A DNA stretch of 64,000 nucleotides from Boswellia sacra (taxonomy: Eukaryota; Streptophyta; Magnoliopsida; Sapindales; Burseraceae): contig SNVD02006977.1 of NCBI GenBank assembly GCA_013180625.2, positions 209,249-273,248 on the forward strand, given 5' to 3'. Of the stretch, positions 13,312-53,540 are shown in pieces. Position 1 is the stretch's first letter, and the number at the start of each line of letters is the position of its first letter. A program made the position numbers and the translations under genes. The notes below the pieces were generated by a model. That model made no database searches and was not told the DNA's origin. It saw only the letters and a program-made list of their open reading frames with translations.

Positions 13312-14779
13312 GTCTCTTGGCTACCTACTTCCCAGCTCTGTTCACTCACTTACGGGAAATTTAATTGAAGCAAGAGTCTCTATCAGCTATCACATCAATT
13401 ATCGTGTACTCAACTGTAGATTTGTGGTTGGACTTGGATTACCCTCAAATTATTTGCAAATTCAACTTAAACTTTTCTATGTAACTAAAACAGTTTTGCA
13501 ATAAACTTTTTTCTTTAATGTATAAATGAATTTGTTTAACCAATTATTGAAACCTTTGAAAGTGCAGATCTTATGGGGGCATTCAGATACAACACTTCAA
13601 GTTATTTGTCTCTGACATATAATTGGAAATTAGTGTTGGATACGTTACAACTCTCCCTAGCTGTGCCTGTGCCTGTGCCTGGACAGATTCTCCTACAAAA
13701 CATAAATATTGTCTTTTTCAAGCATTTATCATTATCCTATTCTTATTTGTCCTGTTTTCAGTTAGCAGTGTACGTAACAAATCGAAGTTTATATTATCTT
13801 TCCCTGATGGCCTGAGGACTGCAGTCTAACGTTTGATTTTTACACGGTTGGCATGTGACGTCATGAACCCAGAGACTTTGTCTTCAGCTGGCAAATTGTA
13901 GTAACATGACAGCTATTCATTTATAATCGAAGTACTGAACATATCCATCATCCAACCTGATGAGGTTAACTGATAATACATTTACATGTGAACTTCAACA
14001 ATAAACTAAATCTGAATCATGTATTGAATGGTTGAATTGTTTGAATAGTTAAGAACAGAAAATAAACTTTATCTATGCAAGTAGTTCTTCTAATGAAGTA
14101 TAAATAATATGAATATTTTGAAAGAGTTGAAAGGTTTTAAACCTAAAATTGTTCTGCTTTTTGTTTTCATGTGAAAATATAATCCTGGACTTCTTGAGAA
14201 TTTAGGGTGGAATTAATCTGTTACAACCAGAAAATCAGGAACATTTAATTTAATTGTTTCTTTTCTTTTTGGTTGTTGCCTTTTTTTGTGTTCTAGGACC
14301 CTCCGCCGTTGAGTCTAATATACAAGGCCAGGTGATGGCTGTGATACCAAATGTAATGATCAGGAAAAAGAAACACTAATTTGACTAATAAAAGATAACC
14401 TCTTGATTAATTTCTCAATGATCCTTTACAAAAGAAAGTCTCTCTTATATGGTAAGAGAGCCTCAAATCATTAGCTTGATTAGAAAGATTATTTCCTTTA
14501 ATTAAGCTAATTTTTTTTTCAAATTAAAAGAAAAGGCAATACCCAAAAAGGAGATAAACAATTAAATCAAAGGTTCCTGATATTCTGCTTGAAACATAAT
14601 CCAACTATAGATAATAAACAAATGGAAATGAAATGAATTAAAACAATATTATCAACAATATGAATTCTTGGAAAGTTCAAAAAGACTCCAACCTCAATTT
14701 CTTTGATGCTCATAGTTGATATTTTCTCTATTGTATTGAAATTTTCATTTAACTTCATATATTTGAGAGATTAAATAAA
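13312..14779. other. Intergenic region upstream of the MATE gene
   Basis: This holds the presumed promoter and 5' UTR of the MATE gene. A short gtgcct triplication sits at about 13660-13680. No further gene, TATA box or regulatory site can be assigned with confidence. The 9-bp target-site copy (14771-14779) of the next element closes the region. Confidence 0.5.
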
Positions 14780-16208
14780 GTGATATTAACAATTTATCCT
14801 CTGAGGTTAAGCAAAAATACAAATTTTCCCTTGTAAGATTTGAAATTACAAATTGCCCATTAATTTTTGAATTCTGATGTTAAATTAAACGAAAATGGAG
14901 GATAAAGAAATTTTTTCACAATTTTACCAAAATAACCTCATGTTCAGTAATTTAATATTGACAATTTACCCTCTGAGATTAAGAAAAAATACAAATTCCC
15001 CCTGCATATTTTGAAATTGCAAATTGTCCTTTTATTTTTTAATTTCGGCATTAAATTAAGTAAAAAATGATGAGAGAGAGGATAATATATGCTATTCGAC
15101 TAAATGCCCTTATACAAATACAAGCACCCTTACCTTTCTTTCTTCCTCCGTCTCCTTCTCTGTCTCCAATCCACCAGCAATCTCCACCACTTCTTCCTAG
15201 TGCTTCACCAAATCTTCCCCCCCACACTGCCATCGTCTAAGGGTGGCAGTTGAATAATGACACCCGAACATGACACGAATACAACATGAACACGATACAC
15301 GATTAATAAATGGGTCGAATTCATATTGAGGGTGTTTAACACACCAACCAGTTTAATGACACGAATAATTAAATATATATTGTCAACCATTAACATGCAA
15401 GCTCTTTTAATAATATAATTTTTACTTTCTTATAACATGTATATTATAAAACTGAAAATTTTATATAAAGTAAATTAATTTACATAACAGTAAATTGTAA
15501 TGATTTTAATAATTTTTTATACTAACAATTATTTATATTCTAAAAATAATTTTAATTGATATAAATATATAGAATATGATATATTATTCATAATTAGGTT
15601 AAAGAATTAAGTAAATTATGTTAATTAAATATAACACGATTACAACACGTAAGTGACACATTTAATAACTGTGTCGAATCCGCTTTTCATATCTTGTCAC
15701 GAACAATTAAATGGGTCGACACACATGACATGAATTGTCATCCCCACGATCGTCGTTTCCTTCTCTTCATTGGCGAAATTGCTTCGATCACAAATTCCTC
15801 CTCTCTCTCCTCTACTAAAGCTCGCCACCGCCTAATTTGGGTTTGTTATTTAAAACTCGGATTAAATGGTGGATTCAATTTGATTCAAATTTATTTTTTA
15901 TTATTTATTCAATAAAGTTTTAAATATTTTTAATTATTATTGTTTTTAATTATTATTATTATTTTCATCCTCATTTTTTAATTATTTTTATTCTTGGGAG
16001 GAGGAAATTTGTATTTTCGTTTAACCTCAGAGGGTAAATTGTTAAATATCCCTTAATTTCATCGCACGAGTTTTATTTTCAATAATACCCCTACTCCGTT
16101 TAACTTAACGTCAGAATTCAAAAATCAGGAAGTAATTTATAATTTCAAATCTTACAGGAGGTAATTTATATTTTCACTTAACCTCGGGGGGTAAGTTGTT
16201 AATATCCC
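14780..16208. mobile_element. Mutator-like element (copy A) with captured DNA and nested MITE
   Basis: The ends are inverted: gtgatattaacaatttatcc at the left and its mirror image ending in gttaatatccc at the right, and similarity extends inward for more than 100 bp. The flanks ttaaataaa (14771-14779) and ttaaatgaa (16209-16217) form a 9-bp target-site duplication with one mismatch; long terminal inverted repeats and a 9-bp duplication are the Mutator pattern. There is no transposase. The interior holds C/T-rich, GC-richer segments (about 15120-15240 and 15745-15850) that look like the 5' part of a host gene, as in Pack-MULEs, split by a second element at 15241-15745. A sister copy lies inverted at 45556-46754. 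Confidence 0.72.
15241..15745. mobile_element. Nested hAT-type MITE (in copy A)
   Basis: The ends gggtggcagtt and aattgtcatcccc are inverted. In the sister copy they are better preserved (ggggtggcaattcgtgtcat and caaattgtcacccccta-like). The interior repeats gacacgaat and gtgtcg-type words. The same insertion at the same point in both Mutator-like copies shows it entered before that element was duplicated. Confidence 0.6.
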
Positions 16209-22735: not shown

Positions 22736-23080
22736 TTTTTTTGGAAAAAGTTACTATTTACATAAAAGAAAAAGTGAATGTACAAGATACGAGGGGTATA
22801 CCCCAAGAAGAGTACCTAATACTCACAATTCCTAACAGGAAATACTAATGCCCAAGGGCCTAAAACAAAACAACCTAAGCAAGAGAGCCAAAGGCCCAAT
22901 CAAATAGAAAAAAAGGCGCACAGGCCCAAACCAACCACAACTAAACCAATAGCAAAACAAAGTCCAAGAACAAAGTTAATTATGCAGACCCCATATGGCA
23001 CGAAGCTGAGGAGTGATCGTATACTTGGCCTCCAAGGCTAGAAGTCGGGAACGAACCAAGTCAAAAATCTCATCAGTCAC

Positions 23081-26000
23081 CTAATGACAGGTCTGGCATC
23101 GCTGTTGATACATACGATCATTCCTTTCATACCAAAGAGAATAAACCGTTGCAGAGAAGACCAAACGTGCAAGGATATGTCCAAAATTCTTCCTGCCCTG
23201 GAGATGCAGAGAAGCCCATTGGAGCAAGGACGTCCAACAAAAGGATTGCCAAACAACGAGAGTCTTAGCTGAAATCTCCCCCCAAACAGAAGATGAGAAA
23301 GGACAGCTAAAGAAAAGATGGTCATGGGTCTCATTTGCTGAAACACAGAGAACACAGCTTGAAGATTGTAAGATACCATGACGTTGTAGTCGATCCATAG
23401 TACGAAACCGACCCAAAGAGGCAAGCCAAAGAATAAAAGAGTGTCTTGGGACATGGCCAGGGAACCAGAGAAGATGATGAAGAGTGTTCACCGGTCGCCT
23501 ACTCCGTAACAATTCCCATGCGGAGCCAATAGAGAAAATACCTGAGGTATGACCCTTCCAAACAACATGATCAGAAGCCCCCATCGTAGGTCGGATGCTG
23601 ACTGAGTCCCAAATCAACCTAAGGGCCTGACCTCCATCAGGAAAAGCCCAGTCCCCATTCTGAATAATGTCTGAGACCCTAGCATCTGAAGGAAGACCTG
23701 TGGATGTAAGAGTCCTGAAGGGTAACAAGTCACACAGATGCCTCTGTGGCAACCAGTAATCCTACCAAAGAGAGGTATTACGGCCATCTCCAATACAAGA
23801 GATAAATTTATCTCTACACCAAGCCCGACTGTGCAAAATCTTCCTCCAAGACCAAGAGGCTCCAGAAGTTACCCGAATCTGCCAAAATGAGCGGCCCCAA
23901 AGGAGCACCTTATGAACCCAAGAAGACCAAGTGGAGGATTGGTTAGAAAGAAGTCTCCAAACATGTTTCAGAATAGCTGCACGATTCCACTCTTTGACTC
24001 GCTTTATTCCTAATCCACCTTTTTTCAATGGATATCAAACTGAATCCCAAGCTACTTTGGCCCCAAAACGAGACAAAGAGATCCCTTTCCAAAGGAAAGC
24101 AACCATAATACCCTCGATCCTCCGTACCACAGCTGCAGGTAGAGTGAACATAGAGGACCAATAGACCTGGATGGAAAAGAGAACTGACTTGATCAATTGA
24201 AGTCGGCCAGCATAAGTCAGCATAGCAGATGTCCATAACCTGATCCTCGACAAAATCCGTTCTATCAATGGAGCACAATCTGAGAGGCGTAATCTGGTAC
24301 TGATTAGAGGTACCCCCAGATATCTGACTGGCAGACTCCCCACTTGAAAACCCAAGATGGCCTCCAATGCAGTTCGGTCCTCATCATTGACTCCAGAGAA
24401 GAAGACATGACTTTTGGCTGAATTCGTAACTAAACCAGAGAGCTCTGTAAACTTCTGTAATGCAGCACGGATCACACTAATAGAGCCCATATCTGCCCTA
24501 CAAAAAACCATTAGATCATCTGCAAAATAAAGATGAGTGAGAGAAACCTGCTAACATTTCCAATGATATCGAAAACCAGGCCTCTGAGTAGCCTCTCGAA
24601 GAATACCACTCAAACCCTCCATGGCCAGCGTAAAAAGGTATGGCGATAAAGGATCACCCTGTCGAATTCCTCTGGAGGTGGAGAAGAACCCGTGAAGCTC
24701 TCCATTTAAAGTAACCTAGAAATATGCAGAGGACATACATGTCGCAATCCAGCGAACCATACACTCTGGAATACTGATTGTTCTTAAACCCAAAAAGATG
24801 AAATCCCAGCTGACAGTATCAAAAGCATTGCGAATATCTACCTTTAAAGCACATCGAGGAGGCGAGCGCCCAAGATGATAATTATGCATCAGAAATTCTT
24901 CGATCGGGGATAAAAGCAGACTGTGAACTCCCAATCACATCAGGTAAGGCCGCTTTGAACCGATTCACGATCACTTTGGAGATACACTTATAGAGCACAT
25001 TACAATAAGAGATTGGTCGAAAATCACTTATAGTCCTCGGACTCTCAACCTTAAGGACCATGGCAATTCTAGTGGCATTAACACATTTAAGCATCCGACA
25101 AGTCATGAAGAAGTAGCGTACAACAGCCTTAAACTCCATACTAATAATATCCCAAGCCCTCTTAAAGAATAGAGAGGTATACCCATCTAGTCCTGGGGCT
25201 TTATCATCAGGAATCGAAAATAAAGCTGACTTGATCTCATCATCAGTAATAGTGCATGACAAAGAAGGTAACATCTCCTCAGAAACTCTTCCAGAGAAAA
25301 ACCGAGAAGCATCTTCAATAGAAGGTCTAGAAAGAGCTGTAAGTAGCTTCTGAAAATACCTCACATCTAGATGTCCTAATTTGCCTTGATCTATAAAGAC
25401 GGTGCCATCCTTATCCTCAAGTTGATGAATTCGGTTCCTGGCCTGTCTATGGATCAATGACTTATGAAAGAATTTGGTATTCTGATCCCCCAAAGAAAGC
25501 CATTGGAACCTTGACCTCTGTCGAAAGAAAACCTCCTCGTCTCTGCATAATTGCGAATACTGTTTAGCAGAAACCCTCTCAGCCGAAATTCATTCTGTTG
25601 AATAGGGGTTCTCATCCAGAGCAGCCTGAGCCGCAACCCACTGAGCCTTGGCCTCGATGACTCTACTAGAAATATGGCTAGAATCTTTTGCATGTAAAGT
25701 CCTGAGTTCACGTTTCAACAAACCCAATTTCCGTGTGACCCGAAACATAGGATCTCCATCGACAGGTATAGACCACACTTCTGTACAATCTCCAAGAAAC
25801 CATCTCGGTCAGCCCAAAAGTTCAAGAATTTAAAAGGACTGAAGGTTCGCCTACGCTGATCTCCAAATCTGATAACCATAGCACTGTGGTCAGAAGCATC
25901 CCGAGGAAAAACCTCAGAAGTTGTGCTTGGCCATGTCAAGAACCATGAAGAGTTACCAAAACTCCAATCAAGAGTTCTAAGAATAGTACCCTCTCCTTGC

Positions 26001-26565
26001 TGCCCATTATGCCAAGTGTATCGAAGCCCAAAAGATGAAACTCTTATCAATGCTGCATCATGAACACACTGACTAAACTTATCTATATAACCATGCCAAG
26101 CTTGAGCTCCACCAACTCTGTCTGTAGAGTGTAAAATCGCATTGAAATCACCCAATACCAACCAAGGTAAATCACCAAAGCCTACAGATTGATCTCTGAT
26201 AAAGTCCTACAACTGTCGACGCCCACCCGGATCATTAGAACCATAAACGAAGACCAGACCACAAGAAACCCCATCTGACAATCTGAGAACTCGACAAGCT
26301 ATCCACTGGGGAGAAGACTGCAGACTACTCAAACTGTACAAAGTAGGATCCCGACAAACCAAGATTCTGCAAGCAATTGAATCAGTGACATTTGACAAGA
26401 AGTGCCAGGAAGGACAAATTTTTGAAACAACCGATGCAAGGTGTTGCTTATTAACCTTAGTCTCTATAAGACCAATTAAACCCAATGAAAACTTAGAAAT
26501 CTAATTTTTAACTGCCCGCTGCGAAGAGAAGCTGTTAAGGCCTCTAATATTCCAACTTCCTATCA
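23081..26565 (-). pseudogene. LINE ORF2: endonuclease and reverse transcriptase
   Basis: Starts with MIGSWNIRGLNS at 26565, as plant L1 ORF2 does. Order of domains: apurinic-type endonuclease (GLIGLIETKV; LVLGDFNAILH; then DASDHSAMV), reverse transcriptase ([67 protein letters not shown]; the catalytic box LYFADDLMVF at about 24500-24530), and the zf-RVT region near the end (CVLCVSANETHDHLFFSCP). In-frame stops occur near 26505, 26207, 24556, 24030 and 23760, and there may be others, so it cannot be translated as one protein. The core motifs are well kept, which argues for fairly recent death. Confidence 0.94.
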
Positions 26566-26934: not shown

Positions 26935-28500
26935 CTTAAAAGCTTTTTTTTTAAAGCTTTTTTTTCTTAAAAGCTTTATTCTTATGTTTCAAAAAGTAAG
27001 TCCATAGCTCCCTAAAGTAATCATTAGTCAAGGATAAGAAATACCTGTTACCACCATGTGAACGCTTACTAGTTGAACCCCAGAGATTGAATGCATATAA
27101 TCAAAAGCACCCTTTATAGTATGACACCCATTTAGAAATGAATTCGATATTGTTTCCTAAAGAAACAATGTTCGCAGAACTCCAATTTACCCACTGGATC
27201 ACCAAACAATAATCTTTGATTGCTTAGCTCCTTCAAACCTCTCTCACTGATATGACCAAAACTTTAACACCAAAGCTTGGTTTTATCCCTATTAGAAATG
27301 TCTCTAAATACTATTTCACCCATTAAAACCTCACCTTACAACATATGCAAGCCATTTTGAATCTTAGCTTTCGTGACAACTAGAGCTCTTTTTGTCACAC
27401 GTATCATCCTAGATAATGTCTTTTACTCACAATCTGTTTTATCCCAGGTACTTAAGGAAATCAAGTTCCTTTTTAACCCAAGAACAGGGTTGACTTCCTT
27501 CAAGATTTTGACAGTCCCATGAAATATCCTAAACCTAACACATCCGATTCCCACAAGATCACAAGCTACATTATTCCCCATCAGAACTTTTTCCCTATTT
27601 ACTGACTGATAAGAAGCAAAAAATTCTTTCTTAAGACATATGTAGAATGTGAACCCTGAATCGAGAATCCACTCACCACCAGATCTCATGTATGACATTA
27701 TTAAAACTTGCGCAGTCTCATAGTCAGATGTTGACGCCACAGCTACATCACCATCATCTACTGCTTTCTCCTTTTTGTTCTTCTATTCAGGGAAGTCACA
27801 TCTAAAGTGACCCTTCTTTTTACAATGACAACACTTCTTCCATTGCTTGAACTTTGACTTTGATCTTGATTTTCTTTTGCCCCTCTGCTCTCTCGTCTCT
27901 GATCAACCTCTCACTGTCAAACCCTCTTCACTGTTTTTAGTTCATTGTTTAGTCCTAATCTTGAGCTCCCTAGATCTCAAAGTCCTAAGCATATCATCAA
28001 AATCAATGTCCCCTATCTTTAATAGCAAATTTAGTTTCCCTGAAATTTTCTGGTAGAAAATTCAAGAGTATAACTACCAAATTTTGTTAACTAATTTTCT
28101 CGTTAACATTAGCAAGATCAACTATAATTTTTATAAAGTCATCAAGATTATTATCTTATTTGATAAATATTTAGTCATATACGAAGATTCGAGTTTAGTC
28201 TAAATCTTTGTTACAGTATCCTCTCTATCTATTTGACGTAACACATTATTTGACAGGTAGAAAATAAGAGTGTTATAGGTCATTTCCATGACCTTATCTT
28301 TCTCCTCCTCAGATAGTTTAGCACTAAGAGCAGTTTTGCCATCAAGAGGTTTAGTGCACTTCTGCTACACTACGATAGCCTTCATCTTCTTTCTCTAAAG
28401 ACTAAAGTCACCCTTTCCATCAAAGTTCTCTATCAAACTTTATTCCATCCATTGCTTCTCACTCAGGAATTTTCACAAATAGGTTGAATCCCAAAACAAG
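26935..28500 (-). pseudogene. Copia gag, protease and pre-integrase part
   Basis: Read on the minus strand from 28500 down. Gag carries several stops; its zinc knuckle KKCCHCKKKGHFRCDFPE is at about 27785-27840. The protease region is in an open stretch (27740-27423): GGEWILDSGFTFYICLKKEF, where the usual Cys after DSG is replaced by Phe, then MGNNVACDLVGIGCVRF and LKRNLISLS. A GAG_pre-integrase-like segment with SFGHISERGLKEL follows, damaged. The reading continues at 22718 after the LINE. The element is dead. Confidence 0.9.
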
Positions 28501-31609: not shown

Positions 31610-33026
31610 TGATAGGTGTCTATTTATGTATTACTTTTATATCAATTCGTCCATGTTTCTTTGCTATATTCCTTGGTATTTTTATGTTTTTGTGTGGTTT
31701 TGATGTTTGTAGGAGTTTTGGAGCAACTTGCACAAAAATGGAGTAAAACCCTTCATTTTCACCTCTGCTAGTCAACCATCTTCTCGATTTAATTGTATTG
31801 ATATACAATGAACCCGATGACATATTATATACCGTTGGAAAGCTCTCGAAGTCTATTTTCTGGAGAAATTTACGGTTTATAAATCCATTCAGTGTACCAA
31901 AAGTTGTAATCAAACAGTGTGAGATGTATAGAAATATAATTCCACAAGTCACTGTAGCATGTATAATACGGGGCACTGTAGCAAGTCACTGTAGCAGAGT
32001 ATTTAAACACATTTTAGGGTTTTATTTTGATAACTTGAAGGGGGAAGAACGTGGTGGAGGCTGCAGCTCTGGAATTCTTTCATCTCTTGGAGTTCTTGAA
32101 GGAGAAAGGAAGCTTGGAAAGAGGAAGAACTACAATCCAAAGAGAATTACATCAAATTTGCTAAGTTTTTCCCTTCCCTTCATTTTCTGGAATGTCTCCA
32201 TGTTGTATTGTATTTACCACGTTCTTAAACATGTGTAACTGAATCTGAATTGGTTGACGGTGATTTCAAAGCCCCTGATATGGTTTTTTGTAAGTTGATT
32301 GTGTAAGGAATTGTTATCCAATTCTCTAATTGAAGTTGCTTGTATTCTCCCATATTTAATGCTTATGATTGCTTGCTGATTGTATTTGAGTGGCCAACTG
32401 AATATAATCTGGTTGTGATTTAATGCTAGACTAGAAATCTTGATCCGTAATTGTCTTGAATTTCTAATCATTAGTAGCAAAATTGTGATCAGAGATTGCA
32501 ATTTGAGAATATAACCTAAGTTAAATAATCCGAGCTTGCATGTTTATTGCTTAGATCAACCTGTCTTTCTTTTCATAATGCATCCATTGAATTAAATTTA
32601 GAGAGCTTCTTCTAGGTTGTTTAATGTATAGAGATTAAATAAAAAGCCTATTTTATTTAACAACAAAGTAAGGAAAGATTGGGATAACAGAGCTTATTGT
32701 TATCTACAGTTGATAATTTCAGTGGTGTAATTGGATGATAATTCTACATTTAATTCGCAACTCCATATCTTGTGGTGGAGAATGATCCCTTAACCAGATT
32801 TCTATCATCGATTAATTCCCATTTCAATTAAGTTTGCATTGTGTTATTCATTAATTACTGTAGTATTCAGTTTTTCATCTAGTTAATCAACCAACAAAAC
32901 CCCCCATTTAGTTAATTGTTGCTGGAAATAACAAATTCAATTAGAATCAATCCTCGTGGGAACGATATCTTACTTATCACTTTATTACTTGTGCGACTAG
33001 TATACTTGCTAGTTTCGAACGCATCA
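31610..33026 (+). repeat. Left LTR of the Gypsy derivative
   Basis: 1417 bp from tgataggtgtctatttatg to gaacgcatca, paired with 38612-40021 in direct orientation. The first 1.1 kb differ at only a few percent of positions. A stretch at about 32800-32920 is much more different from its partner. The primer-binding site follows at once, so the element is read on the plus strand. Confidence 0.95.
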
Positions 33027-33032
33027 AGTTTT

Positions 33033-33048
33033 TGGCACCGTTGCGGGG
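33033..33048 (+). other. Gypsy primer-binding site
   Basis: TGGCACCGTTGCGGGG a few bases after the LTR is a slightly altered form of the primer-binding site usual in Athila/Tat-type plant Gypsy elements. Confidence 0.88.
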
Positions 33049-33140
33049 GATTGATTTTCTAATCGATTTGTTATTTTGTTTTCATTGTTGATTCATATTT
33101 TTGTTTGTTTTTCTTTTTTGATTGTTTGTGTTTAGACGAC

Positions 33141-33943
33141 ATGGCAGTAAACTTCCATCAATTCAGTGGCGAATTTGAGCCACAACTACCATGGAGAGTA
33201 AATGAAGTAAGCACTCCGAACATTGAACAACAACTTTTTGAGTTAACTTCTCTTGTGGAAAACATGGCTGTAGGACATATGCAGAAATCTTATGCATGTG
33301 GAGTATATTCTACCATGGAGCATCCAATCGACATGTATCCAACTTTACAGGAAGAATATATGGAACGGGCCAATGCCATGGGTGGATTTCCAGGACAACC
33401 AAGGCAATGGTATGATCCCTTCTCTAATACTTACAATGCCGGATGGGGAGATCACCCTAATTTTAATTATTGGAATCATCAACCAATCGCCGCAAATGCC
33501 ATACCAAATCGGCCACAATGTTTCAATCAACCTAGAGTGCATCAACCATTTCAAATGCAACCACCACCAATGCCATATCCAGCACCACAACCAACTTCAC
33601 AAAACTCAGGTATGTCTCTCTAGGATATTGTTAATGCACTTGCCACTAATACAATGCAATTCCAGCAGGAAACTAGGGCAAGTATCCAAAATCTCGCAAA
33701 TCAAATGGGACAATTGGCTACTAGCATGAGCAAATTTGAAGGCCAATGCTCAGAAAAATTATCTTCTCAAACGGTGATCAATCCAAGAGAGAATGCTTGT
33801 GCGATAACTTTGCGAAGTGGAGAGCAAATTCGAAATGGAGAGCAAATGGCAACTGGGCAAGTATCCAAAACTGACAAAGAAATCACACCTGATGAAGGAG
33901 ATGCACCACTTCCCCATGAAACAAGACATCATCCTCTAAGGTA
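33141..33943 (+). pseudogene. Gypsy gag, 3' part
   Basis: The frame opens at 33141 (MAVNFHQFSGEF) and has one stop (TAG at 33621) before continuing as DIVNALATNTMQFQQETRAS, IQNLANQMGQLATSMSKFEG and NPRENACAITLRSGEQI to 33943. This is the Gln/Pro-rich C-terminal half of an Athila-type gag. The retrotransposon gag domain itself (N-terminal half) and the zinc knuckle are not found between the primer-binding site and this point, so a 5' deletion is likely. The copy cannot make a complete capsid protein. Confidence 0.88.
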
Positions 33944-34240
33944 AGTCCTTAAAACTGCTATTCCTTCTTATGTTACTCCTCTCCTCCACTTTTTTCCTAG
34001 CAATTGACAAATTGAAAAAGGGAGGAACAAGAAACAGAAATCCTGGAACTTCTCGTAAATTGAGATAATATACCACGTCTAGAATGCTACCGATTCAGTA
34101 CCGTGTTATACAAAATGTCTCAAGGAGTTCTGCACCAGCAAGAGAAAGTTAAAAGGGAATGAGAAAGTAAGTGTGGGGGAAAATTTTTAGCTTACTACAA
34201 GAAAAATTCCTTCGAAATGCATAATCCCAGTACGATCACC
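33944..34240. other. Degenerate gag-protease spacer
   Basis: No open frame. A gtgtgggggaaaatttt purine-rich run lies at about 34171-34187 and a cttactacaagaaaaattcc word at 34194-34213. The first looks like a Gypsy polypurine tract but is in the middle of the element, which fits a rearranged or chimeric structure. Confidence 0.4.
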
Positions 34241-34259
34241 ATTCCATGCACCATTGTAA

Positions 34260-35177
34260 AACAAGTTGAAAGAGCTATGTTAGATTTAGAAGCATCTAGT
34301 AGTCTGCCATTTCCTATTTATGCTTCTTGAAATCTTGGACCTTTTGCGAAAACTGGTATTACCATTCAACTTGCTGATCATTTTAATGCATATCCCAAAA
34401 GAGTTGTGGAAGATGTGCTTGTGCAGGTGAATCGATTGGTTTTCCCAGCAAACTTCTATGTCCTTGAAATAGAGAATGAGACATCTCCTGATTCTTTTAG
34501 GAAGACCATTCTCGAAAACTGTTAGAACCAAGATTTATGTTCATGATGGCACTCTTATCATAGAGTTTGATGGCAAGGTGATATGTTTCAATATTTTTGA
34601 GGCAATGAGGTACTCTAGTGACTTACATTCTGTTTTTGCAGTTGACGTTGTTGATTCTTTGCCACAACAATATTTTGAGTTAACTTGCAAGAATGGACTG
34701 GATGTAGCTATTAGTGAGCACATAGGGACAGAAAATTCTAAGGAATCAAGAATTTTGATACAAGTGTCTAAAGAAGTGAAGAAAGCTCTGGCAAGCTTAG
34801 ATGAGACTATAGCCATAACCATAAGTAGGTATGATGTTTCGTATTTTGAATTGTCTTTATCTAATGAGAAACTTTTTCATTCTGTGATGAAGGCCAATAC
34901 CATGGAGCTTAAGTCACTTCCAGATCATTTGAATCATGGATTCTTAGGCGAGAATGGTACTTTGCCAATTGTAATAGAAATGGGCCTTGCACCAATACAA
35001 GAAGTGAAACTCGTCAAAGTACTTAGAGATCACAAAACGACTATTGGGTGGACAAGTGCTCACATCCAAGGCCCAGCCATATGCGTGCACCATTTCTTGT
35101 GGAAAGAAGGGTCCAAGCCCACTAGAGAAGCACAACAGAGATTGGATCCTGCCATGATGGAACCAATGTCGGGCTGA
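34260..35177 (+). pseudogene. Gypsy protease and start of reverse-transcriptase region
   Basis: Frame 1 from about 34275 reads LDLEASSSLPFPIYAS, a stop, LGPFAKTGITIQLADHFNAY and VEDVLVQVNRLVFPANFYVL, the retropepsin-like protease of Athila elements. It then shifts frame near 34500 into an open frame (LLILLGRPFSKTVRTKIYVH to 35177). The tail LKSLPDHLNHGFLGENGTLP, VLRDHKTTIGWTSAHIQGPA and GSKPTREAQQRLDPAMMEP is the segment just before the reverse transcriptase core. The frame stops there. No reverse transcriptase, RNase H or integrase follows: a large deletion ends at about 35165. Confidence 0.9.
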
Positions 35178-35217
35178 GGACGTTAAACCAAGCGCTTATT
35201 GGGAGGCAACCCAATGT
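35170..35217 (+). other. Post-pol Gypsy signature motif
   Basis: The words gacgttaaaccaagcgctta and ttgggaggcaacccaatg are a conserved non-coding signature found just after integrase in many Athila-like plant elements. Here it directly follows the pre-RT segment, which marks the deletion junction. Confidence 0.65.
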
Positions 35218-35511
35218 TTTTGAAAAATAAATAAACAAGGAAAAGAAAAATAAAATAAGGTAATAATGATCAATTTTTGTGTCTCGAGGAGATTCCTTTC
35301 GTAGACCATCAAGTTGACCAGGTTTTATCTCTCCTTGCCATCTGTCTTATTCGTTTATATATATATATATATATATTTTTTTTTTTTACTTGTTTTTGAC
35401 TTTTGTTTGCTATTGTGTTGTTATCTCTTTTATATGTCTTTAGTTTCGTTTCTGCTCTTTTCTTTTCCTTCCTTTTGTTTAATTTGATTATTCCGTACTT
35501 CGAATTCATTT

Positions 35512-35617
35512 GTTCAGCAACTTGAGGAAACATTCAAACGGGAGTTGAAGCCATTGTTCAAAGGTTTAAAACGTGCATATCTGGGAGAAGAACAAACTCA
35601 ATCGCATTATCGGTAAT
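35512..35617 (+). pseudogene. Second copy of the pre-RT linker
   Basis: The frame ending TAA at 35615-35617 reads QQLEETFKRELKPLFKGLKR and then AYLGEEQTQSHYR. ELKPLxxxLKxAYLGE is the same linker type as LKSLPDHLNHGFLGENG at about 34911-34960 but closer to the usual consensus. It is out of place downstream of the post-pol motif, so the element appears to be a mosaic of two relatives. Confidence 0.5.
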
Positions 35618-35639
35618 ATCTCTCCTTTTTTTCTCTTCA

Positions 35640-36194
35640 ATGGATGCTGATATCTTTCTATCGAACCTTCGTAAATATTTCCCTTCACTTCCAAAAAATG
35701 CTGTGTTTAAAATTTATAAAGTACGGATGACTAGACTTTGGGCATTGATGCTCCTAAATGTGCCTGATGATATCCGATGGCTTATCGAAGCCAAGGTGAG
35801 ATTGTCCGGTGAGCCGGACATTAATCTCGCAAAATACATGCCTGGTCTAGGAAAGAGCTACTACGCCAAGAGGCGAAGAGCGAAAAGGTTACAAGTATGT
35901 TATAAATGTGCTAGATGGAATTGTAACCAGACTTGTCGTTCATTAGGTTTTGCGTCCAGGAATAGAGAAGATAAACTTTCATTTATTAAGAATGGTTTGA
36001 GTAATGAGTCGCTGGATAATGTTTTGTTAACTCTCGAGTCACATTCTTGTGGACTTGTTCAGCGTGAATTGCTTAATCTATGGACACAATTTCGTGATGA
36101 ATTGCAGTGTTATAGTCTAGGGAATCTGACTAAAAACGACCCTGTTTGCCAGTTTATAAGAAAACTGGATGGGAAGCAAATCCCCGACTCATAG
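35640..36194 (+). CDS. 184-residue Arg/Cys-rich ORF, carlavirus NABP-like
   Basis: Intact ORF from the first ATG after the linker. Residues 70-84 (LGKSYYAKRRRAKRL) are a basic patch immediately followed by C87-x2-C90-x4-C95-x3-C99 (CYKCARWNCNQTC). A glycine plus YA-basic-RRRA run followed by a Cys cluster is the hallmark of the cysteine-rich nucleic-acid-binding proteins of carlaviruses and related Betaflexiviridae; in those viruses such proteins bind RNA and several suppress silencing. The Cys spacing is shorter here than in the viral family, and a C-terminal extension (residues 100-184, partly amphipathic) has no match I know. The N-terminal part has a hydrophobic segment (LWALMLLNVP). I infer a captured, diverged viral-type gene or a convergent retroelement accessory protein. 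Expression and function are not shown. Confidence 0.55.
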   Translation: MDADIFLSNLRKYFPSLPKNAVFKIYKVRMTRLWALMLLNVPDDIRWLIEAKVRLSGEPDINLAKYMPGLGKSYYAKRRRAKRLQVCYKCARWNCNQTCRSLGFASRNREDKLSFIKNGLSNESLDNVLLTLESHSCGLVQRELLNLWTQFRDELQCYSLGNLTKNDPVCQFIRKLDGKQIPDS

Positions 36195-36419
36195 AAGGCG
36201 TTTCAGCCGTTACTGGACGTAAAACCAGAGGAAGATGTGAGCCACAATCACAACTACTTGTATATTTGAATGTGTGTTGTTGTTGTAGAATTTTTTTTCT
36301 TGTTTCGTTTGATCTGATTATCAATGTTGTTTTTGTGTTGTTGTTGTTTGTTGATTTTGTTTGTTTTAATTTCAAGTTTTCTTTTTGACAAACCATATGA
36401 CTACCCTATGGCATAAGTA
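36195..36419. other. Spacer between the Arg/Cys-rich ORF and the repeat array
   Basis: T-rich (ttgttgttg- and ttttttcttg-type runs), no credible coding sequence. It may act as a pyrimidine-rich untranslated leader for the downstream region, which is speculation. Confidence 0.4.
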
Positions 36420-36676
36420 CACGTGGGAGACAAGTGTGGAGGTTTTGTCAACCTCCACCGAAAGTGTATCTCTATTTTTTATGCTTCACGTGGGAGACAA
36501 GTGTGGGGGTTTTGTCAACCCCCGTCGAAAGTGTATCTCCATTTTCCATGCTTCACGTGGGAGACAAGTGTGTAGGTTTTGTCAAACCTCGCCGAAAGCA
36601 TATTTCATTTTTTCAAATCTTGGGGCGATAAATCTGCATCGAGCAACCCCCACCGAAAGTATGTCCCCATGTGTCA
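36420..36676 (+). repeat. 67-bp tandem repeat with conserved hairpins
   Basis: Units start at 36420, 36487 and 36554, exactly 67 bp apart, with a partial fourth to about 36676. Each full unit has cacgtgggagacaagtgtg, then an inverted repeat around the loop tgtc, then ccgaaagtgtatctc. In unit 1 the stem is gtggaggtt/aacctccac (36436-36458, 9 bp). In unit 2 the core is gggggtt/aaccccc, changed on both sides. In unit 3 it is aggttt/aaacct. Paired change on both arms suggests that RNA structure matters. The period is not a multiple of three, so the array is not protein-coding. It lies 125 bases upstream of the LOG start. Confidence 0.85.
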
Positions 36677-36801
36677 AAATTTGAGAGTTTTATGGGTGTA
36701 TATATACATTCTGCATATTTTCATATGTCATTCCATAACCTGTCTTGCAATTAACACATAATATCTAACGTGTCTTACACAAGATTAGAGCACTTGTAGA
36801 A

Positions 36802-37451
36802 ATGGAGAAAACACCAATTCGGCGATTCCGCAATATATGCGTATTTTGCGGATCGCAATTTGGTAAAGATGGAGAGTTTACCACAGTAGCTCTTGATCTT
36901 GGTAGGACATTAGCTGCGAGGGGTATTAATTTGATTTATGGAGGGGGTAGTCTTGGGTTAATGGGGTGTGTGTCAACAGCTGCATCCCTAGGAGGGAGCA
37001 AAGTTCTCGGCATTATCCCTAAACCATTAGCTGTACGAGATATCGTAGGCAACACAATCGGGGAAGAGTTACAGGTCTCTAGCATGCATGAGCGTATTGC
37101 ACATATGGTTGTTAAGTCCGATGCATTTATAGCTTTGCCTGGTGGTTATGGTACATTAGAGGAGATATTTCAAATCACTCTTGGGCACAGCTAAACATCC
37201 ATCGGAAACCCATTGGTTTGTTAAATGTCAATAATTTTTTTGATGGTTTGTTGTCTTTTCTTGATCAAGCTGTAGAAAAAAATTTTATCTCACCATCAGC
37301 GAGGCAAATCCTTGTTACAGCTTCAACGGCAGGGGAGTTAATTGACAAACTACAAGAATTCGTCTATTCGCCTGATCCAACAACAGCTCGGATTGATTGG
37401 TTTGGAGAAGGCAATAAGAGGCGTAAACTGGATTTAACACTCCATCTGTAA
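36802..37451 (+). pseudogene. LOG: LOG cytokinin riboside 5'-monophosphate phosphoribohydrolase, intronless, one frame break
   Basis: LOG enzymes release active cytokinin bases from nucleotides in the cytosol and nucleus. The first frame (36802-37194) has FRNICVFCGSQFGKDGEF, NLIYGGGSLGLMG, the nucleotide-site motif PGGYGTLEEIFQIT and SSMHERIAHM, where the catalytic Arg is kept but the next residue, normally Lys, is Ile. At about 37181 the frame shifts by two bases (ITLGHS then stop, where the family has ITWAQL). The other frame then continues with KPIGLLNVNNFFDGLLSFLD, SPSARQILVTASTAGELIDK and stops at 37451. The family length is about 215 residues, matched if the break is ignored. Host LOG genes have several introns; this has none, so it came through RNA. 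It is diverged throughout, not a fresh copy. It lies between the two LTRs. Confidence 0.92.
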
Positions 37452-38611
37452 TCTCTATTTGCTGGTTTGCTTCGTTTTTGTTTGCTTTCTTTTTATTGTG
37501 TTTATTTGAAGTTTTTCATGTTATTTATTTTGAGATTTTTCAGGTTGTTTCTTTCCTCCCAGGTAATATTTTCTAATCTTGGTTTTTAGAGTGGTGGCTT
37601 AAAAAGTTTAAGTCCTCTTGAAACGCATTATGGATCTCTTTAATCTATAATGGTTGAATAAGGAGGCTAGCTTCTAAACTTTTTAGACCCATTCTAACTG
37701 ACTTGTTTTTGTTTGCTGGCTTGTTGGACTTTGTTATTTTATGAGTAAGTTTAGTTTTATGTAATTTAGAAGTTGTTATGTGTTTTTTGTCTTTATCAGT
37801 TTCGATTAAAAAAAATTGTGAAAAAAAGTTGAGAATGGCAGAATATGGGGTTTTCTTTAACCCTTGAAACACATTCTCTCGACATAAATCTGTAGTTTGT
37901 TTATTTCATGTTGTTTGAAGTGTCTTGTATCTTGTTTTGTTCTTTCATAATAAAGGTATATAGGCTGGAAACCTTAAGTCTGCGGGCTACTGGTCCTAAG
38001 GATTGTTGAAATATACAATCTTGACTCAGGTGTAACAACGCCACGTACCTCTTTTCTTACATTTTGTGGGTCGATGATAAGATAATGATTGAATTAAGAA
38101 TAACTCTTGGAAAATGATAAATGATGCATGGATCTGTGTGCTTGAAATGTTTATTGGTTTTCGCTTTGCTTTTGATTCCTTGCGCAACATTGAGCACTGA
38201 GCTATTATCACTGAGTTATTTGTTCACTTAGAGAAAGTTTATGTAATTTAAATGTTTCTTCAGATTTCAATGAATTCTAGAACTTGTTTGATGGTCACTC
38301 GAGGCGAAATCCTAGACTGTGCAACATTAGGGAAATGATTTAGGCCATCTTTGGACCGTTTGAGCCTTAAGAGCCAACCTTGACTAAAATTGATCCCTAG
38401 TTACCCCTTTGAGCCTCTGTAAACCTTTTCTTTGTTAACTCACTAAAAGATTTCCTAATCTCAATTGAATTTGTTCCAAACAGTTTATCCCTTACCTATG
38501 AGCATGTAAATCATTCGCAATTACATTTTGAGCTATGTTCTGGGTTTGGGAAGTTAGAGGAGGTTGGATTGTGCCCCGAGACTGTCAGACTTCAACATCG
38601 TGCAGTGCCGG
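37452..38611. other. 3' non-coding part of the Gypsy derivative
   Basis: No coding sequence. Typical T-rich 3' region of Athila-like elements, with gtgcaacattagggaaatga and ttgagcctctgtaaacc-type words. No purine-rich tract lies directly before the right LTR: the last bases are tcgtgcagtgccgg. Confidence 0.5.
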
Positions 38612-40021
38612 TGATAGGTGTCTATTTATGTATTACTTTTATATCAATTCGTCCATGTTTCTTTGCTATATTCCGTGGTATTTTTATGTTTTTGTGTGGT
38701 TTTGATGTTTGTAGGAGTTTTGGAGCAACTTGCACAAAAATGGAGTAAAACCCTTCATTTTCACCTCTGCTAGTCAGTGATCTTCTCGGATTTAATTGTA
38801 TTGATATACAATGAACCCGATGACATATTATATACCGTGGAAAGCTCTCGAAGTCTATTTTCTGGAGAAATTTACGGTTTATAAATCCATTCAGTGTACC
38901 AAAAGTTGTAATCAAAACAGTGTGAGAAGTATAGAAATGTAATTCCACAAATCACTGTAGCATGTATAATACGGGGCACTGTAGCAGTCACTGTAGCAGA
39001 GTATTTAAACACATTTTAGGGTTTTATTTTGATAACTTGAAGAGGGGAGAACGTGGTGGAGGCTTCAGCTCTGGAATTCTTTCATCTCTTGGAGTTCTTG
39101 AAGGAGAAAGGAAGCTTGGAAAGAGGAAGAACTACAATCCAAAGAGAATTACATCAAATTTGCTAAGTTTTTCCCTTCCCTTTCATTTTCTGGAATGTCT
39201 CCATGTTGTATTGTATTTACCACGTTCTTAAACATGTGTAACTGAATCTGAATTGGTTGAGGGTGATTTCAAAGCCCCTGATATGGTTTTTGTAAGTTGA
39301 TTGTGTAAGGAATTGTTATCCAATTCTCTAATTGAAGTTGCTTGTATTCTCCCATATTTAATGCTTATGATTGCTTGCTGATTGTATTTGAGTGGCCAAC
39401 TGAATATAATCTGGTTGTGATTTATTGCTAGACTAGAAATCTTGATCCGTAATTGTCTTGAATTTCTAATCATTAGTAGCAAAATTGTGATCAGAGATTA
39501 CAATTGGAGAATATAACCTAAGTTAAATAATCCGAGCTTGTGTGTTTATTGCTTAGATCAACCTATCTTTCTTATCATAATGCATCCATTGAATTAAACT
39601 CAGAGAGCTTGTTCTAGGTTGTTTAATGGATAGAGATTAAATAAAGAGCTTGTTTTATTTAACAACAAAGTAAGGAAAGATTGGGATAACAGAGCTTGTT
39701 GTTATCTACGGTTGATAACTTCAATGCTGTAATTAGATGACAATTCTACAATTAATTCGCAAATCCATATCTTGTGGTAGAGAAGGATCCCTTAACCAGC
39801 TTTCTGCCATTGATTTTTCATTCAAATTTACTTTCTGTTTTGTTATTCTTTACTTGCATTCTTATTTCATTTAGTAAATCATTCAACAAAAATCCCCCCT
39901 GTTTAGTTTATTGTTGCTGGAAATAACAAATTCAATTAGAATCAATCCTCGTGGGAACGATATCTTACTTATCACTTTATTACTTGTGCGACTAGTATAC
40001 TTGCTAGTTTCGAACGCATCA
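38612..40021 (+). repeat. Right LTR of the Gypsy derivative (or a solo LTR)
   Basis: 1410 bp, direct copy of 31610-33026, from tgataggtgtc to gaacgcatca. The five bases before it (gccgg) and after it (gccga) nearly match, which would fit a solo LTR with its own target-site duplication. The five bases before the left LTR (gatgt) do not match gccga. So the pair may be one old element with altered flanks, or two separate insertions. Confidence 0.9.
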
Positions 40022-51976: not shown

Positions 51977-52888
51977 TCAAGTCTTGGATAAAGTATCATC
52001 ACTTGAGAAATCAAATGGACTCCAATTATTAAACAAAAGATTTGGATCTTGTACCGCTTCAGGCCCAAGCATCGGCTCTTGTGTTGCTTGAATGCTATGG
52101 TTTACCATCATTTGAGAATTCAGCCATAGCATCTCTTGAGGATTCATCCCTTCACTTGGCAATGGTGGAATTAACGCTTGAATATTATGATCACTAATTG
52201 TACTGTAAGTACTTGAACATAGTTGAACTCCATCTTGTTGATGCTTGTGATGAACTGAATCAAATACAGCAGAATACATCTGATCATTCTCTCCGAAATG
52301 AGTTGAGAGGGACAACTCTGCCAGAGACAAGCTTCCAACCACACCATTTTCTTCTGGTAGTAATTGAACTGTGCTATCCCAAGTTGTGCACGCTATGCTT
52401 GAAAACTCCAGAGATGGATCAAACTCACTAGGGAATTCTGGCATTGATTCAGAGGCTCCAGTACTACTCTTATTGGTATCCGGTTGTTGATTCAAGAAAT
52501 TTGCATAAACAAGTGCAAGATCAATATGCGAACCATCTTCAACTGTGGAAGAATTAATAGTGGATTCAACCAACGAATTGACTTTGCTGCCATAAGCGTG
52601 CCCAACTGACCCATTAGCTCTAACCCCATATGCCAAACTTTTAGAGGAAACAGCAGCAGCATCAGTTGACAACCTTACAGACTTTCCTCTCCTGTTCTTC
52701 CGGCAACCGCCACCGACGGGAACGTTCCGCAGAGAGCCGCCTTTAGTCCAATACCTTCTACATCCCTTGCAAAAGTATCGCGGTTGTGTCAAGCTATAGT
52801 TGTTGTAGTAACAAAATTTGGTATTTGAAGAGCCACAACGTGGACAATTTGGTGATATTTCAACATTAGGCTTCCACCCTCTGTCCAT
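51977..52888 (-). CDS. Dof zinc-finger transcription factor
   Basis: 303 residues in one exon, starting at the ATG at 52888 ([13 protein letters not shown]); the open frame runs two codons further up but without ATG. The Dof domain (about residues 13-65) has the single zinc finger C15-x2-C18-x21-C40-x2-C43, with [37 protein letters not shown] and a basic tail CRKNRRGKS. Dof proteins are plant-specific nuclear factors that bind AAAG cores. The rest is Ser/Asn/Gln-rich and probably the activation region, ending [17 protein letters not shown]. The short N-terminus followed by [19 protein letters not shown] suggests the DOF3.5-like subgroup, a tentative placing. A CT-rich leader lies at 52930-52990. 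No lesion seen. Confidence 0.96.
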
Positions 52889-53540
52889 TACCAATAGCCT
52901 TCAACTGCTTAGACTTCATCAAATTGCCTCAAAATCTATCTCTCCCTCTCCCTCTCTCTTTCCTCAGTTGAAGAGAGAGGCTGTCAGTTGGAGAGAATGA
53001 AACAATGTTAATTAGAGTTATAAGGAGTGATGTATGGGAATTGAAGTACGTGGGTAGTGCATTTGGTAAAGAATATTGAGTACAAAGAATATACCACGTC
53101 GAATAAACATTTATTTCATAAACTATCATTCATATTGGTGATTATAATAAACAGAATAATAATAATAATAATAATAATAATACAATCACAACATAAATTT
53201 ATGAGTTAATTATTATAATGACTAACTTGAGAGGTCTTTTTGAGTTTTAATAAAGTCTTTATGTTTTTGCCGTAATTATGTTTAACTTTAAGAGACAAAA
53301 ATTCTGCTCTAAAAAAAGTTAGAAAACATTAAAAAAATATTGTTGTCCAGTCTTGAGTTGACGAGCAATTTACCAAGTACTAAATATTATTTCGTCATTG
53401 ATGAGTAACACTCATCATCTTGAAATACGTCTCTATCAATATCAACAGAGGTTCATCAACTCGGCTTCTTTGATAAGCGCAGATTTATTATCTATGAGGG
53501 GTGTATTCTATATTAGATATTAAACTTGATTAGATAAAAA
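52889..53540. other. Dof upstream region
   Basis: The CT-rich stretch next to the start codon (about 52938-52980) probably lies in the 5' UTR. An (aat)n microsatellite lies at about 53155-53181. No other feature seen. Confidence 0.5.

What the first reader, a model, noticed from the sequence alone, without database searches (positions are those of the whole stretch)
31610..40021. LTR retroelement carrying a virus-like RNA-binding ORF and a cytokinin-activating LOG ORF
Seen: two 1.4-kb direct repeats with a primer-binding site, gag and protease remnants, then an intact 184-codon Arg/Cys-rich ORF, a structured tandem repeat, and an intronless LOG homologue, all before the right LTR. Known: LOG makes active cytokinin; carlavirus-type cysteine-rich proteins bind RNA and some block silencing. 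Inference: a retroelement lineage may have taken up cargo that shields it from silencing and stimulates cell division, much as pathogens use cytokinin. I know of no description of this combination. The host genome, not the element, could still be the user of these genes.
Basis: partly seen in the sequence, partly recalled or inferred. Interest (0 to 1): 0.92.

Follow-up and report, generated by a model that had tools for sequence, protein, structure and literature searches.

The report
Retroelement carrying viral-type and cytokinin genes
A plant jumping gene present in many copies carries two extra genes, one resembling a plant-virus RNA-binding protein and one resembling the enzyme that switches on the growth hormone cytokinin, and both look maintained by selection, which suggests the element uses them to manipulate its host cell.

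Summary
The window holds a damaged Ty3/gypsy, Athila-type element: two ~1.41-kb LTRs (95.4% identical), PBS, gag and protease remnants, most of RT-to-integrase missing, an intact carlavirus-like nucleic-acid-binding ORF (NABP), a 67-bp repeat array, and a LOG gene whose frame is broken. In the same genome (639 Mb) NABP lies upstream of LOG in 43 of 43 loci examined, the window included. Two copies were read with gag, RT, RNase H, integrase, NABP and LOG; 4 of 4 copies with both LTRs complete have 5-bp target-site duplications. Both genes diverge under purifying selection (dN/dS about 0.14-0.19). LOGs of this type from several plant families form one clade apart from the few host LOGs sampled, and most end in an LxLxL (EAR-like) tail not seen in those. 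A ~125-nt block across the NABP stop codon (UAG in 25 of 25 open copies) is more conserved than the ORF. LOG in such elements was already in print; the NABP partner, the tail and the block I did not find. Function is inferred: two growth- or silencing-related cargo proteins serving the element.

The parts
31610..33026 (+). left LTR (starts TGATAG, ends GCATCA)
   Evidence: complete relatives in the same genome have ~1.43-kb LTRs that also start TGATA
33033..33050 (+). primer-binding-site-like sequence directly after the left LTR
   Evidence: read; relative L043 has TTGGCGCCGTTGCCGGG at the same place; tRNA-Asp assignment is recalled
33141..33623 (+). gag remnant ORF
   Evidence: 31% identity to the gag zone of L040/L041, which in L040 matches Retrotrans_gag; no Pfam match itself
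34476..35177 (+). protease / RT-start remnant; RT-to-integrase missing after it
   Evidence: 29-30% identity over 229 residues to the piece before RT in L040/L041; protease name by position and recall, no Pfam match
35640..36194 (+). NABP: carlavirus-like nucleic-acid-binding ORF, 184 codons, intact, stop TAG
   Evidence: 150 matches at 98-100% identity scored in the genome, the window's included
36140..36265 (+). block spanning the NABP stop codon, more conserved than the ORF; predicted hairpins with some paired changes
36420..36613 (+). 67-bp tandem repeat, 2.9 copies; no Rfam match
36802..37194 (+). LOG gene, N-terminal 130 codons incl. PGGYGTLEE; frame broken after it
37195..37451 (+). rest of LOG in another frame (lies inside open frame 37116-37451)
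37416..37448 (+). basic cluster + LxLxL (EAR-like) C-terminal tail of LOG
38612..40021 (+). right LTR

Best explanation
The window holds a defective copy of an abundant Athila-type Ty3/gypsy family whose fuller copies read LTR-gag-protease-RT-RNase H-integrase-NABP-LOG-LTR. The two genes sit where other Athila elements have an env-like ORF. They are long-standing genes of the element, not host genes caught by accident. NABP is a basic protein of about 182 residues with an Arg-rich stretch and four conserved cysteines, related to the cysteine-rich proteins of carlaviruses. LOG keeps the phosphoribohydrolase motif and has gained an LxLxL C-terminal tail, often after a basic cluster. Proposed working (inferred): the element makes both proteins from its RNA. 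NABP binds nucleic acid, probably in the nucleus, and either blunts RNA silencing of the element or alters host transcription, as related viral proteins do. LOG releases active cytokinin where the element is expressed, and its tail carries it to the nucleus and may recruit TOPLESS-type corepressors. Together they would keep element-expressing cells dividing and permissive, so that new copies reach meristems and germ line. Shown: element identity, recurrence, linkage, selection, tail, conserved block. Inferred: expression, enzyme activity, binding partners, benefit.
For: Linkage: the 30 best loci of a LOG search (L010-L039), and 5 further LOG loci, all have NABP upstream of LOG on the same strand; so have the 8 full-length segment copies, window included, where the query held both. 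Copy number: 150 LOG matches scored of 14387 candidates, 150 NABP matches scored of 13990, 149 without an internal stop and 98-100% identical; top-scoring candidates, so lower bounds that lean to intact copies. Whole elements: gag, RT, RNase H, integrase, NABP, LOG in order in 2 of 2 copies read. LTR pairs in 6 of 7 NABP+LOG copies examined, 97-99% identical; 5-bp duplications in 4 of 4 with both LTRs complete. Selection between subfamilies: NABP dN 0.203 / dS 1.48, LOG dN 0.213 / dS 1.10; NABP window vs L001 dN 0.255 / dS 1.42. LOG tree: 35 LOGs of this type on one side of a branch, 99/98, against AtLOG3, AtLOG8, two cereal LOGs and a bacterial LOG. Residues: R102 66/69, E125 66/69, PGGxGTxxE 60/69. 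Tail: LxLxL in the last 16 residues in 54 of 74 database LOGs of this type of 195 aa or more, background 15 of 13885 windows, and in 25 of 25 own-genome LOGs open to the usual end. Viral kinship: Viral_NABP in 31 and Carla_C4 in 29 of 34 members. Viral relatives act as silencing suppressors, one also as a transcription factor inducing hyperplasia (PMC12172455, passages).
Against: No expression, enzyme or binding data. BFVD structure matches to viral NABPs rank first but are not significant (E 0.18-0.36), and the NABP model is mediocre (pLDDT 71, pTM 0.52). The host lysine next to the catalytic arginine (K103) is I, L or M in 64 of 69, which could alter catalysis. 20 of 74 LOGs lack LxLxL, among them the Xanthoceras copies that branch first, and only 11 of 25 own-genome LOGs have a run of three basic residues before it, so a nuclear signal is unsure. 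L001, with integrase and NABP, has no LOG in its 980 bp downstream, so LOG is not obligatory. Within the L010 subfamily pN/pS is about 0.4 for both genes, as expected if many copies drift after insertion. Many cut-out copies are broken: NABP of usual length in 25 of 39, LOG open to its tail in 25 of 38. That database LOGs of other species lie in elements is inferred from the clade and copy number, not shown copy by copy.
Confidence: 0.62

Rival explanations
1. The two proteins serve the element's own replication mechanics rather than host manipulation: NABP as an extra nucleocapsid, RNA-export or packaging factor in the env position, with the conserved stop-codon block as its RNA target, and LOG as a moonlighting nucleotide-binding fold.
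For: NABP sits directly after integrase with a strongly conserved block across its stop; L001 has NABP without LOG.
Against: LOG keeps the PGGxGTxxE motif and the Arg/Glu positions in most members and carries a repressor-like tail; gag already has a CCHC knuckle (L040).
Confidence: 0.22
2. Passive transduction: a host LOG cDNA and a viral fragment were trapped in an element and hitchhiked to high copy number without function.
For: Gene capture by plant LTR elements is known (PMC7264820, first of three parts read); this copy's LOG is broken.
Against: dN/dS 0.14-0.19 between subfamilies; one old LOG clade holding Xanthoceras, Populus, Parasponia, Reevesia and Diplodiscus with a mostly conserved tail (orders recalled); NABP family of 715 relatives at E<=0.01 among 2358 candidates.
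Confidence: 0.07
3. Host genes: the ORFs are domesticated or ordinary host genes that LTRs flank by chance.
For: Some LOG copies are annotated as LOGL10 in Populus; a single domesticated copy cannot be excluded.
Against: At least 150 copies of each gene on many contigs, 5-bp duplications around complete elements, LOG read without introns, LOG clade apart from sampled host LOGs.
Confidence: 0.03
4. NABP is a recent carlavirus integration (endogenous viral element) next to an unrelated retroelement.
For: Pfam viral families match.
Against: A distinct family, 49-71% identical to the window's protein among the 33 others aligned, linked to integrase and LOG; only 18-26% identity in the three best structural matches to viral proteins; no relative confirmed among IMG/VR contigs, a weak argument since that collection may hold few plant RNA viruses.
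Confidence: 0.03

Closest known systems
Gypsy elements with a LOG (YgdH) domain in Citrus and Populus (PMC9289625, section 12; Steinbauerova et al. 2011, recalled: Athila-like)
   Same: LOG-like extra ORF in Gypsy elements of plants in which I also find NABP or LOG relatives.
   Different: In the section read no NABP partner, C-terminal tail, stop-codon block or clade analysis is mentioned; LOG is listed as one of several rarer extra domains. The supplements were not seen.
Phalaenopsis Gypsy elements with an AlkB m6A demethylase ORF (PMC9289625)
   Same: Extra RNA-acting enzyme fixed in a plant Gypsy lineage, proposed to counter host control.
   Different: Different protein; activity was shown in vitro there, not here.
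Carlavirus cysteine-rich / nucleic-acid-binding proteins (Pfam Carla_C4, Viral_NABP)
   Same: Pfam scores above cut-off over the Arg-rich and cysteine region.
   Different: Encoded by a retroelement, own family; the first 34 residues lie outside the Pfam matches; direction of transfer unknown.
Plant LOG enzymes, AtLOG3 (2a33) and AtLOG8 (1ydh)
   Same: Same protein family; PGGxGTxxE and the conserved Arg/Glu mostly kept.
   Different: Intronless, separate clade, host Lys after the Arg replaced, LxLxL tail added.

Membership tests
LTR retrotransposon, Ty3/gypsy, Athila lineage | paired LTRs, PBS, 5-bp target-site duplication | tested here: met
   window: LTRs and PBS yes, duplication no; relatives: duplication in 4 of 4 with both LTRs complete
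LTR retrotransposon, Ty3/gypsy, Athila lineage | gag, RT, RNase H, then integrase (gypsy order) | tested here: met
   met in L040 and L041; the window copy lacks most of RT-INT
LTR retrotransposon, Ty3/gypsy, Athila lineage | no second (archaeal-type) RNase H (mark of Tat; PMC6317226, passages) and no chromodomain | tested here: inconclusive
   no such Pfam match in the pieces scanned and only 133 nt between the RNase H and integrase frames of L041, which fits Athila; stretches outside the scanned pieces were not tested and no RT tree was built
LTR retrotransposon, Ty3/gypsy, Athila lineage | Athila ORF-1 domain (pfam03078), found in 16% of Athila elements (PMC6317226, passages) | tested here: not met
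   not found in pieces scanned; present in a minority only, so not required
LOG phosphoribohydrolase | Lysine_decarbox/LOG domain with PGGxGTxxE and conserved Arg | tested here: met
   for the family; in the window copy the motif is present but the frame is broken
LOG phosphoribohydrolase | activity on cytokinin riboside 5'-monophosphates | not testable with these tools
   needs an enzyme assay
Carlavirus-type NABP / cysteine-rich protein | Pfam Viral_NABP and Carla_C4 above gathering score | tested here: met
   window protein above both; 31 and 29 of 34 members at E<=0.01
Carlavirus-type NABP / cysteine-rich protein | same fold as viral NABPs | tested here: inconclusive
   top 3 of 33 BFVD matches are viral NABPs or a silencing suppressor, but E 0.18-0.36
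Carlavirus-type NABP / cysteine-rich protein | nucleic-acid binding, silencing suppression | not testable with these tools
   needs bench work
EAR-motif repressor | LxLxL or DLNx(x)P motif (PMC9956375, abstract start and passages) | tested here: met
   LxLxL in 54 of 74 and 25 of 25 own-genome LOGs open to the usual end
EAR-motif repressor | TOPLESS binding and repression | not testable with these tools
   needs an interaction assay

The most novel reading that the evidence does not exclude
A plant retroelement lineage behaves like a pathogen with two effectors: a nuclear LOG-EAR protein that makes cytokinin and recruits the host corepressor TOPLESS, and a virus-type zinc-binding NABP that suppresses silencing or reprograms transcription. 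The constant UAG stop, followed by a conserved in-frame extension of at least 22 codons, is a programmed readthrough site or regulatory RNA element. Carlavirus cysteine-rich proteins and these retroelement proteins then share an ancestor that moved between RNA viruses and retroelements.
Probability: 0.27. Interest if true: 0.92.

Novelty: new variant of a known kind. Interest (0 to 1): 0.74.

Why it matters
Plant retroelements are thought to rely on the host passively. A lineage with selected genes for hormone activation and a virus-type RNA-binding protein, with relatives in several plant orders and at least 150 scored copies of each gene in this genome, would make 'do selfish elements steer host development to reach the germ line?' directly testable. 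It also offers a possible gene exchange between RNA viruses and retroelements, and an unusual enzyme-plus-EAR-tail architecture. In practice, some LOG and NABP-like gene annotations in plant genomes are probably transposon genes.

Tried and rejected
Rejected: tRNA or Rfam feature (none). A LOG remnant in L001 (a 13-residue match, E 0.03) is chance level: 13 of 200 shuffles score as high. An earlier idea of mine that the left LTR is truncated was dropped when relatives proved to start with the same TGATA. IMG/VR scans with NABP, the NABP alignment, a DNA word of the conserved block, LOG and integrase gave no relatives. First NABP fold from 34 sequences was poor (pLDDT 58); 113 sequences gave pLDDT 71. 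PDB searches gave no NABP relative. Contig-length coincidence (5 exact NABP/LOG pairs, one with unlike sources, against a mean of 0.8 at 30 shifted offsets; 87 and 27 contig lengths of 1300 or more typed by hand, chromosome-length ones left out) is superseded by direct linkage.

RNA structure of the stop-codon block: predicted energies are only mildly below shuffles (z -1.57 and -1.82). Window versus L001: two pairs changed on both sides, one on one side, none broken; permutation 0.003 for the double changes, 0.00025 with no pair broken (MFE structure). Over 29 rows (28 distinct), three pairs show a change on both sides, but eight pairs are broken or gapped in one row each. So the nucleotide conservation is firm and the structure a lead. 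A pattern count of the block in the own genome did not complete.

Literature: six of nine searches sought prior description of LOG or NABP in retroelements; three covered the viral protein, LOG in mobile elements or viruses, and LOG with an EAR motif. LOG/YgdH was found (PMC9289625); NABP, Viral_NABP or Carla_C4 in a retroelement was not. The library lacks most subscription papers, no supplements could be read, and Steinbauerova et al. 2011 (abstract recalled: two Athila-like elements similar to LOGL4) could not be read.


Full report
1. What is in the window. Two direct repeats, 31610-33026 and 38612-40021, flank about 5.6 kb. Aligned, they agree at 1340 of 1404 positions (95.4%); differences cluster in the 3' part, so age from the LTRs is unreliable and recombination between copies is likely. 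A PBS-like sequence follows the left LTR. A gag remnant and a protease/RT-start remnant follow; they have no Pfam match but resemble the same zones of fuller relatives. The rest of RT to integrase is missing. Then come NABP (35640-36194, intact), a 67-bp x 2.9 repeat and LOG. LOG's frame stops at 37194; its C-terminal part lies in another frame to 37451. No target-site duplication is seen. So this copy is a non-autonomous, probably rearranged one with one intact and one broken cargo gene.

2. The same unit elsewhere in this genome. The genome (638.6 Mb, 7431 contigs, unnamed) answered on the 15th attempt. The 35640-37451 segment gave 41 matches (40 candidates scored of 2734), 8 over the full length at 93-100% identity, the window's own included. 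A LOG protein search gave 150 matches covering all or nearly all of the protein (150 scored of 14387 candidates); by my count of the table 118 have no internal stop. An NABP protein search gave 150 matches (150 scored of 13990), 149 without an internal stop, all at 98-100% identity. These are top-scoring candidates, so intact copies are over-represented and the numbers are lower bounds of copies, not fractions of the family.

3. Linkage. NABP lies upstream of LOG on the same strand in the 30 best loci of the LOG search (L010-L039) and in the 8 of the segment search, one of them the window itself, where the query held both genes; also in 5 further LOG loci (L040, L041; L054-L056): 43 of 43. The gap is about 240 nt in the L010 subfamily and 605-616 nt in most of the window's. 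NABP is open with its usual length in 25 of 39 loci (L001 included; one more is longer), LOG to its tail in 25 of 38.

4. They lie inside elements. Two copies were read further. L041 and L040 each show gag, protease/RT, integrase, NABP and LOG in order, with Pfam RVT_1 and RT_RNaseH in both, rve in L041, Retrotrans_gag in L040. In both, gag-pol is split over more than one frame. Seven NABP+LOG copies were checked for LTRs: a pair was found in 6 (97-99% identical; in one the right LTR is cut short, in one the left LTR is only partly in the stretch); in the seventh the left LTR was not in the stretch fetched. In the 4 copies with both LTRs complete, 5-bp direct duplications flank them (TTCAG, GCAGT, ACATC, GTGCC), after moving BLAST's LTR ends by up to two bases. 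Pol was read in only one of these four. The PBS of one is TTGGCGCCGTTGCCGGG.

5. Elsewhere in plants. NABP relatives: 118 proteins at E<=0.01 among 153 candidates, 715 among 2358 with a profile (best 120 listed). Named hosts include Populus, Xanthoceras, Rhamnella, Gossypium, Citrus, Orobanche, Acer and Diplodiscus. Three gene models, P0070 (Rhamnella), P0116 (Acer) and P0118 (Diplodiscus), run NABP and LOG together, and P0068 (Rhamnella) runs an integrase-end-like stretch into NABP (the integrase part by eye, no Pfam match). L001, a plant-like 3.3-kb contig filed under a bacterial MAG, has integrase, then NABP, and no LOG in the remaining 980 bp.

6. NABP. 182 residues in most of the members aligned; in 113 aligned sequences the Arg-rich stretch (residues 77-82), cysteines 87, 90, 95, 99 and many C-terminal positions are at least 90% invariant. 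Pfam Viral_NABP matches 31 and Carla_C4 29 of 34 members scanned. The AlphaFold model (pLDDT 71, pTM 0.52) finds, of 33 viral matches, a carlavirus NABP, a fig latent virus silencing suppressor and another carlavirus NABP on top, none significant by itself (E 0.18-0.36).

7. LOG. The window's 130 codons are 56% identical to AtLOG3 and 70-71% to the nearest database LOGs checked. In a 40-row tree all 35 LOGs of this type are on one side of a branch (99/98), with AtLOG3, AtLOG8, Eleusine, Avena and a bacterial LOG on the other. Limits: only four plant host LOGs were at hand, the 35 rows were chosen from the best 120 hits to the window's LOG, and that those of other species lie in elements is inferred. 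Of 69 LOGs of 205 aa or more, R102 and E125 are kept in 66 each, PGGxGTxxE in 60; the host K103 is I, L or M in 64 (that these positions are catalytic is recalled). New here: the C-terminus. Of 74 LOGs of 195 aa or more, 54 have LxLxL within the last 16 residues, 56 a run of three basic residues within the last 22, 46 both; in 16-residue windows elsewhere in these and two cereal LOGs LxLxL occurs in 15 of 13885. The two cereal LOGs lack it, and no such motif shows in AtLOG3 up to residue 211 of 215 or AtLOG8 up to 207 of 216. LxLxL is the EAR consensus (PMC9956375). All 25 LOGs of the cut-out loci that stop at the usual end have LxLxL and PGGxGTxxE, but only 11 have the basic run. The window's broken gene also encodes the tail.

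8. Selection (intact copies only, so leaning to conserved ones). NABP: L002 (the window's) versus L012 dN 0.203, dS 1.48; versus L001 dN 0.261, dS 1.44 (0.255 and 1.42); L012 versus L001 dN 0.162, dS 0.91. LOG: L003 versus L010 dN 0.213, dS 1.10. dS is near saturation, so ratios are approximate (0.14-0.19). Within the L010 subfamily mean pN/pS is 0.41 (NABP, 19 copies) and 0.38 (LOG, 24 copies).

9. The stop-codon block. Over the last ~50 nt of NABP and ~50 nt after it, identity between subfamilies is 0.90-0.98 per 50 nt, against 0.50-0.84 in the rest of the ORF, 0.64-0.84 in the next 50 nt and 0.37-0.56 beyond that in the larger bins. All 39 loci have the 126-nt block at 91-100%. The stop is TAG in 25 of 25 open copies; in 23 of 25 the frame goes on through a near-identical stretch of at least 22 residues, in many of the L010 subfamily further, to 31-70, and four database proteins read the same stretch after losing the stop. 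Changes are not limited to synonymous positions, so constraint on RNA is more likely than on peptide; readthrough stays open.

10. How it works, and what is known. Cysteine-rich proteins of related viruses are silencing suppressors, and that of chrysanthemum virus B is also described as a transcription factor that induces hyperplasia (PMC12172455, passages). LOG proteins regulate cytokinin activity (PMC9289625 section 12; enzyme step established knowledge). Extra ORFs between pol and the 3' LTR are frequent in plant elements, Athila among them (PMC7264820 first part; PMC11728184 and PMC6317226 passages). LOG/YgdH in Citrus and Populus Gypsy elements is in print (PMC9289625). I did not find NABP in a retroelement, the LOG tail or the stop-codon block in the searches. 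Weighing: that these are selected genes of an Athila-type element, about 0.95; that they act mainly on the host cell as proposed, about 0.6; that the LOG tail binds TOPLESS, about 0.4.

Noticed in passing
window 15125-15941 and 46376-45556 (inverted): An 0.8-kb interspersed repeat pair, 88% identical, in opposite orientation, plus a smaller related pair at 14782-15123 and 46752-46410.
   Followed up: no
window 23077-26206, minus strand: Degraded reverse-transcriptase reading frames (RVT_1 below Pfam's cut-off in two of them); LINE assignment is by eye.
   Followed up: partly
window 27426-27782, minus strand: Pol_BBD fragment (E 1.5e-18), probably of a copia-type element.
   Followed up: partly
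window 51977-52900, minus strand: Dof zinc-finger transcription factor ORF (E 9e-32).
   Followed up: partly
window 12387-13320, minus strand: Probable exons of a MATE transporter gene (MatE E 1.3e-18 in 12390-12986).
   Followed up: partly
L001 (DAIEQH010000041.1): Contig filed under a Candidatus Nomurabacteria MAG encodes a plant-type retroelement integrase and NABP, so it is probably plant contamination.
   Followed up: partly
protein database, Reevesia pubescens: Dozens of annotated LOG proteins on many chromosomes are close to the window's LOG; those put in the tree fall in its clade, so they are probably transposon genes annotated as host genes.
   Followed up: partly
window 36266-36366: T/G-rich imperfect repeats (TTGTTGTTG) between NABP and the tandem repeat; no function assigned.
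   Followed up: no
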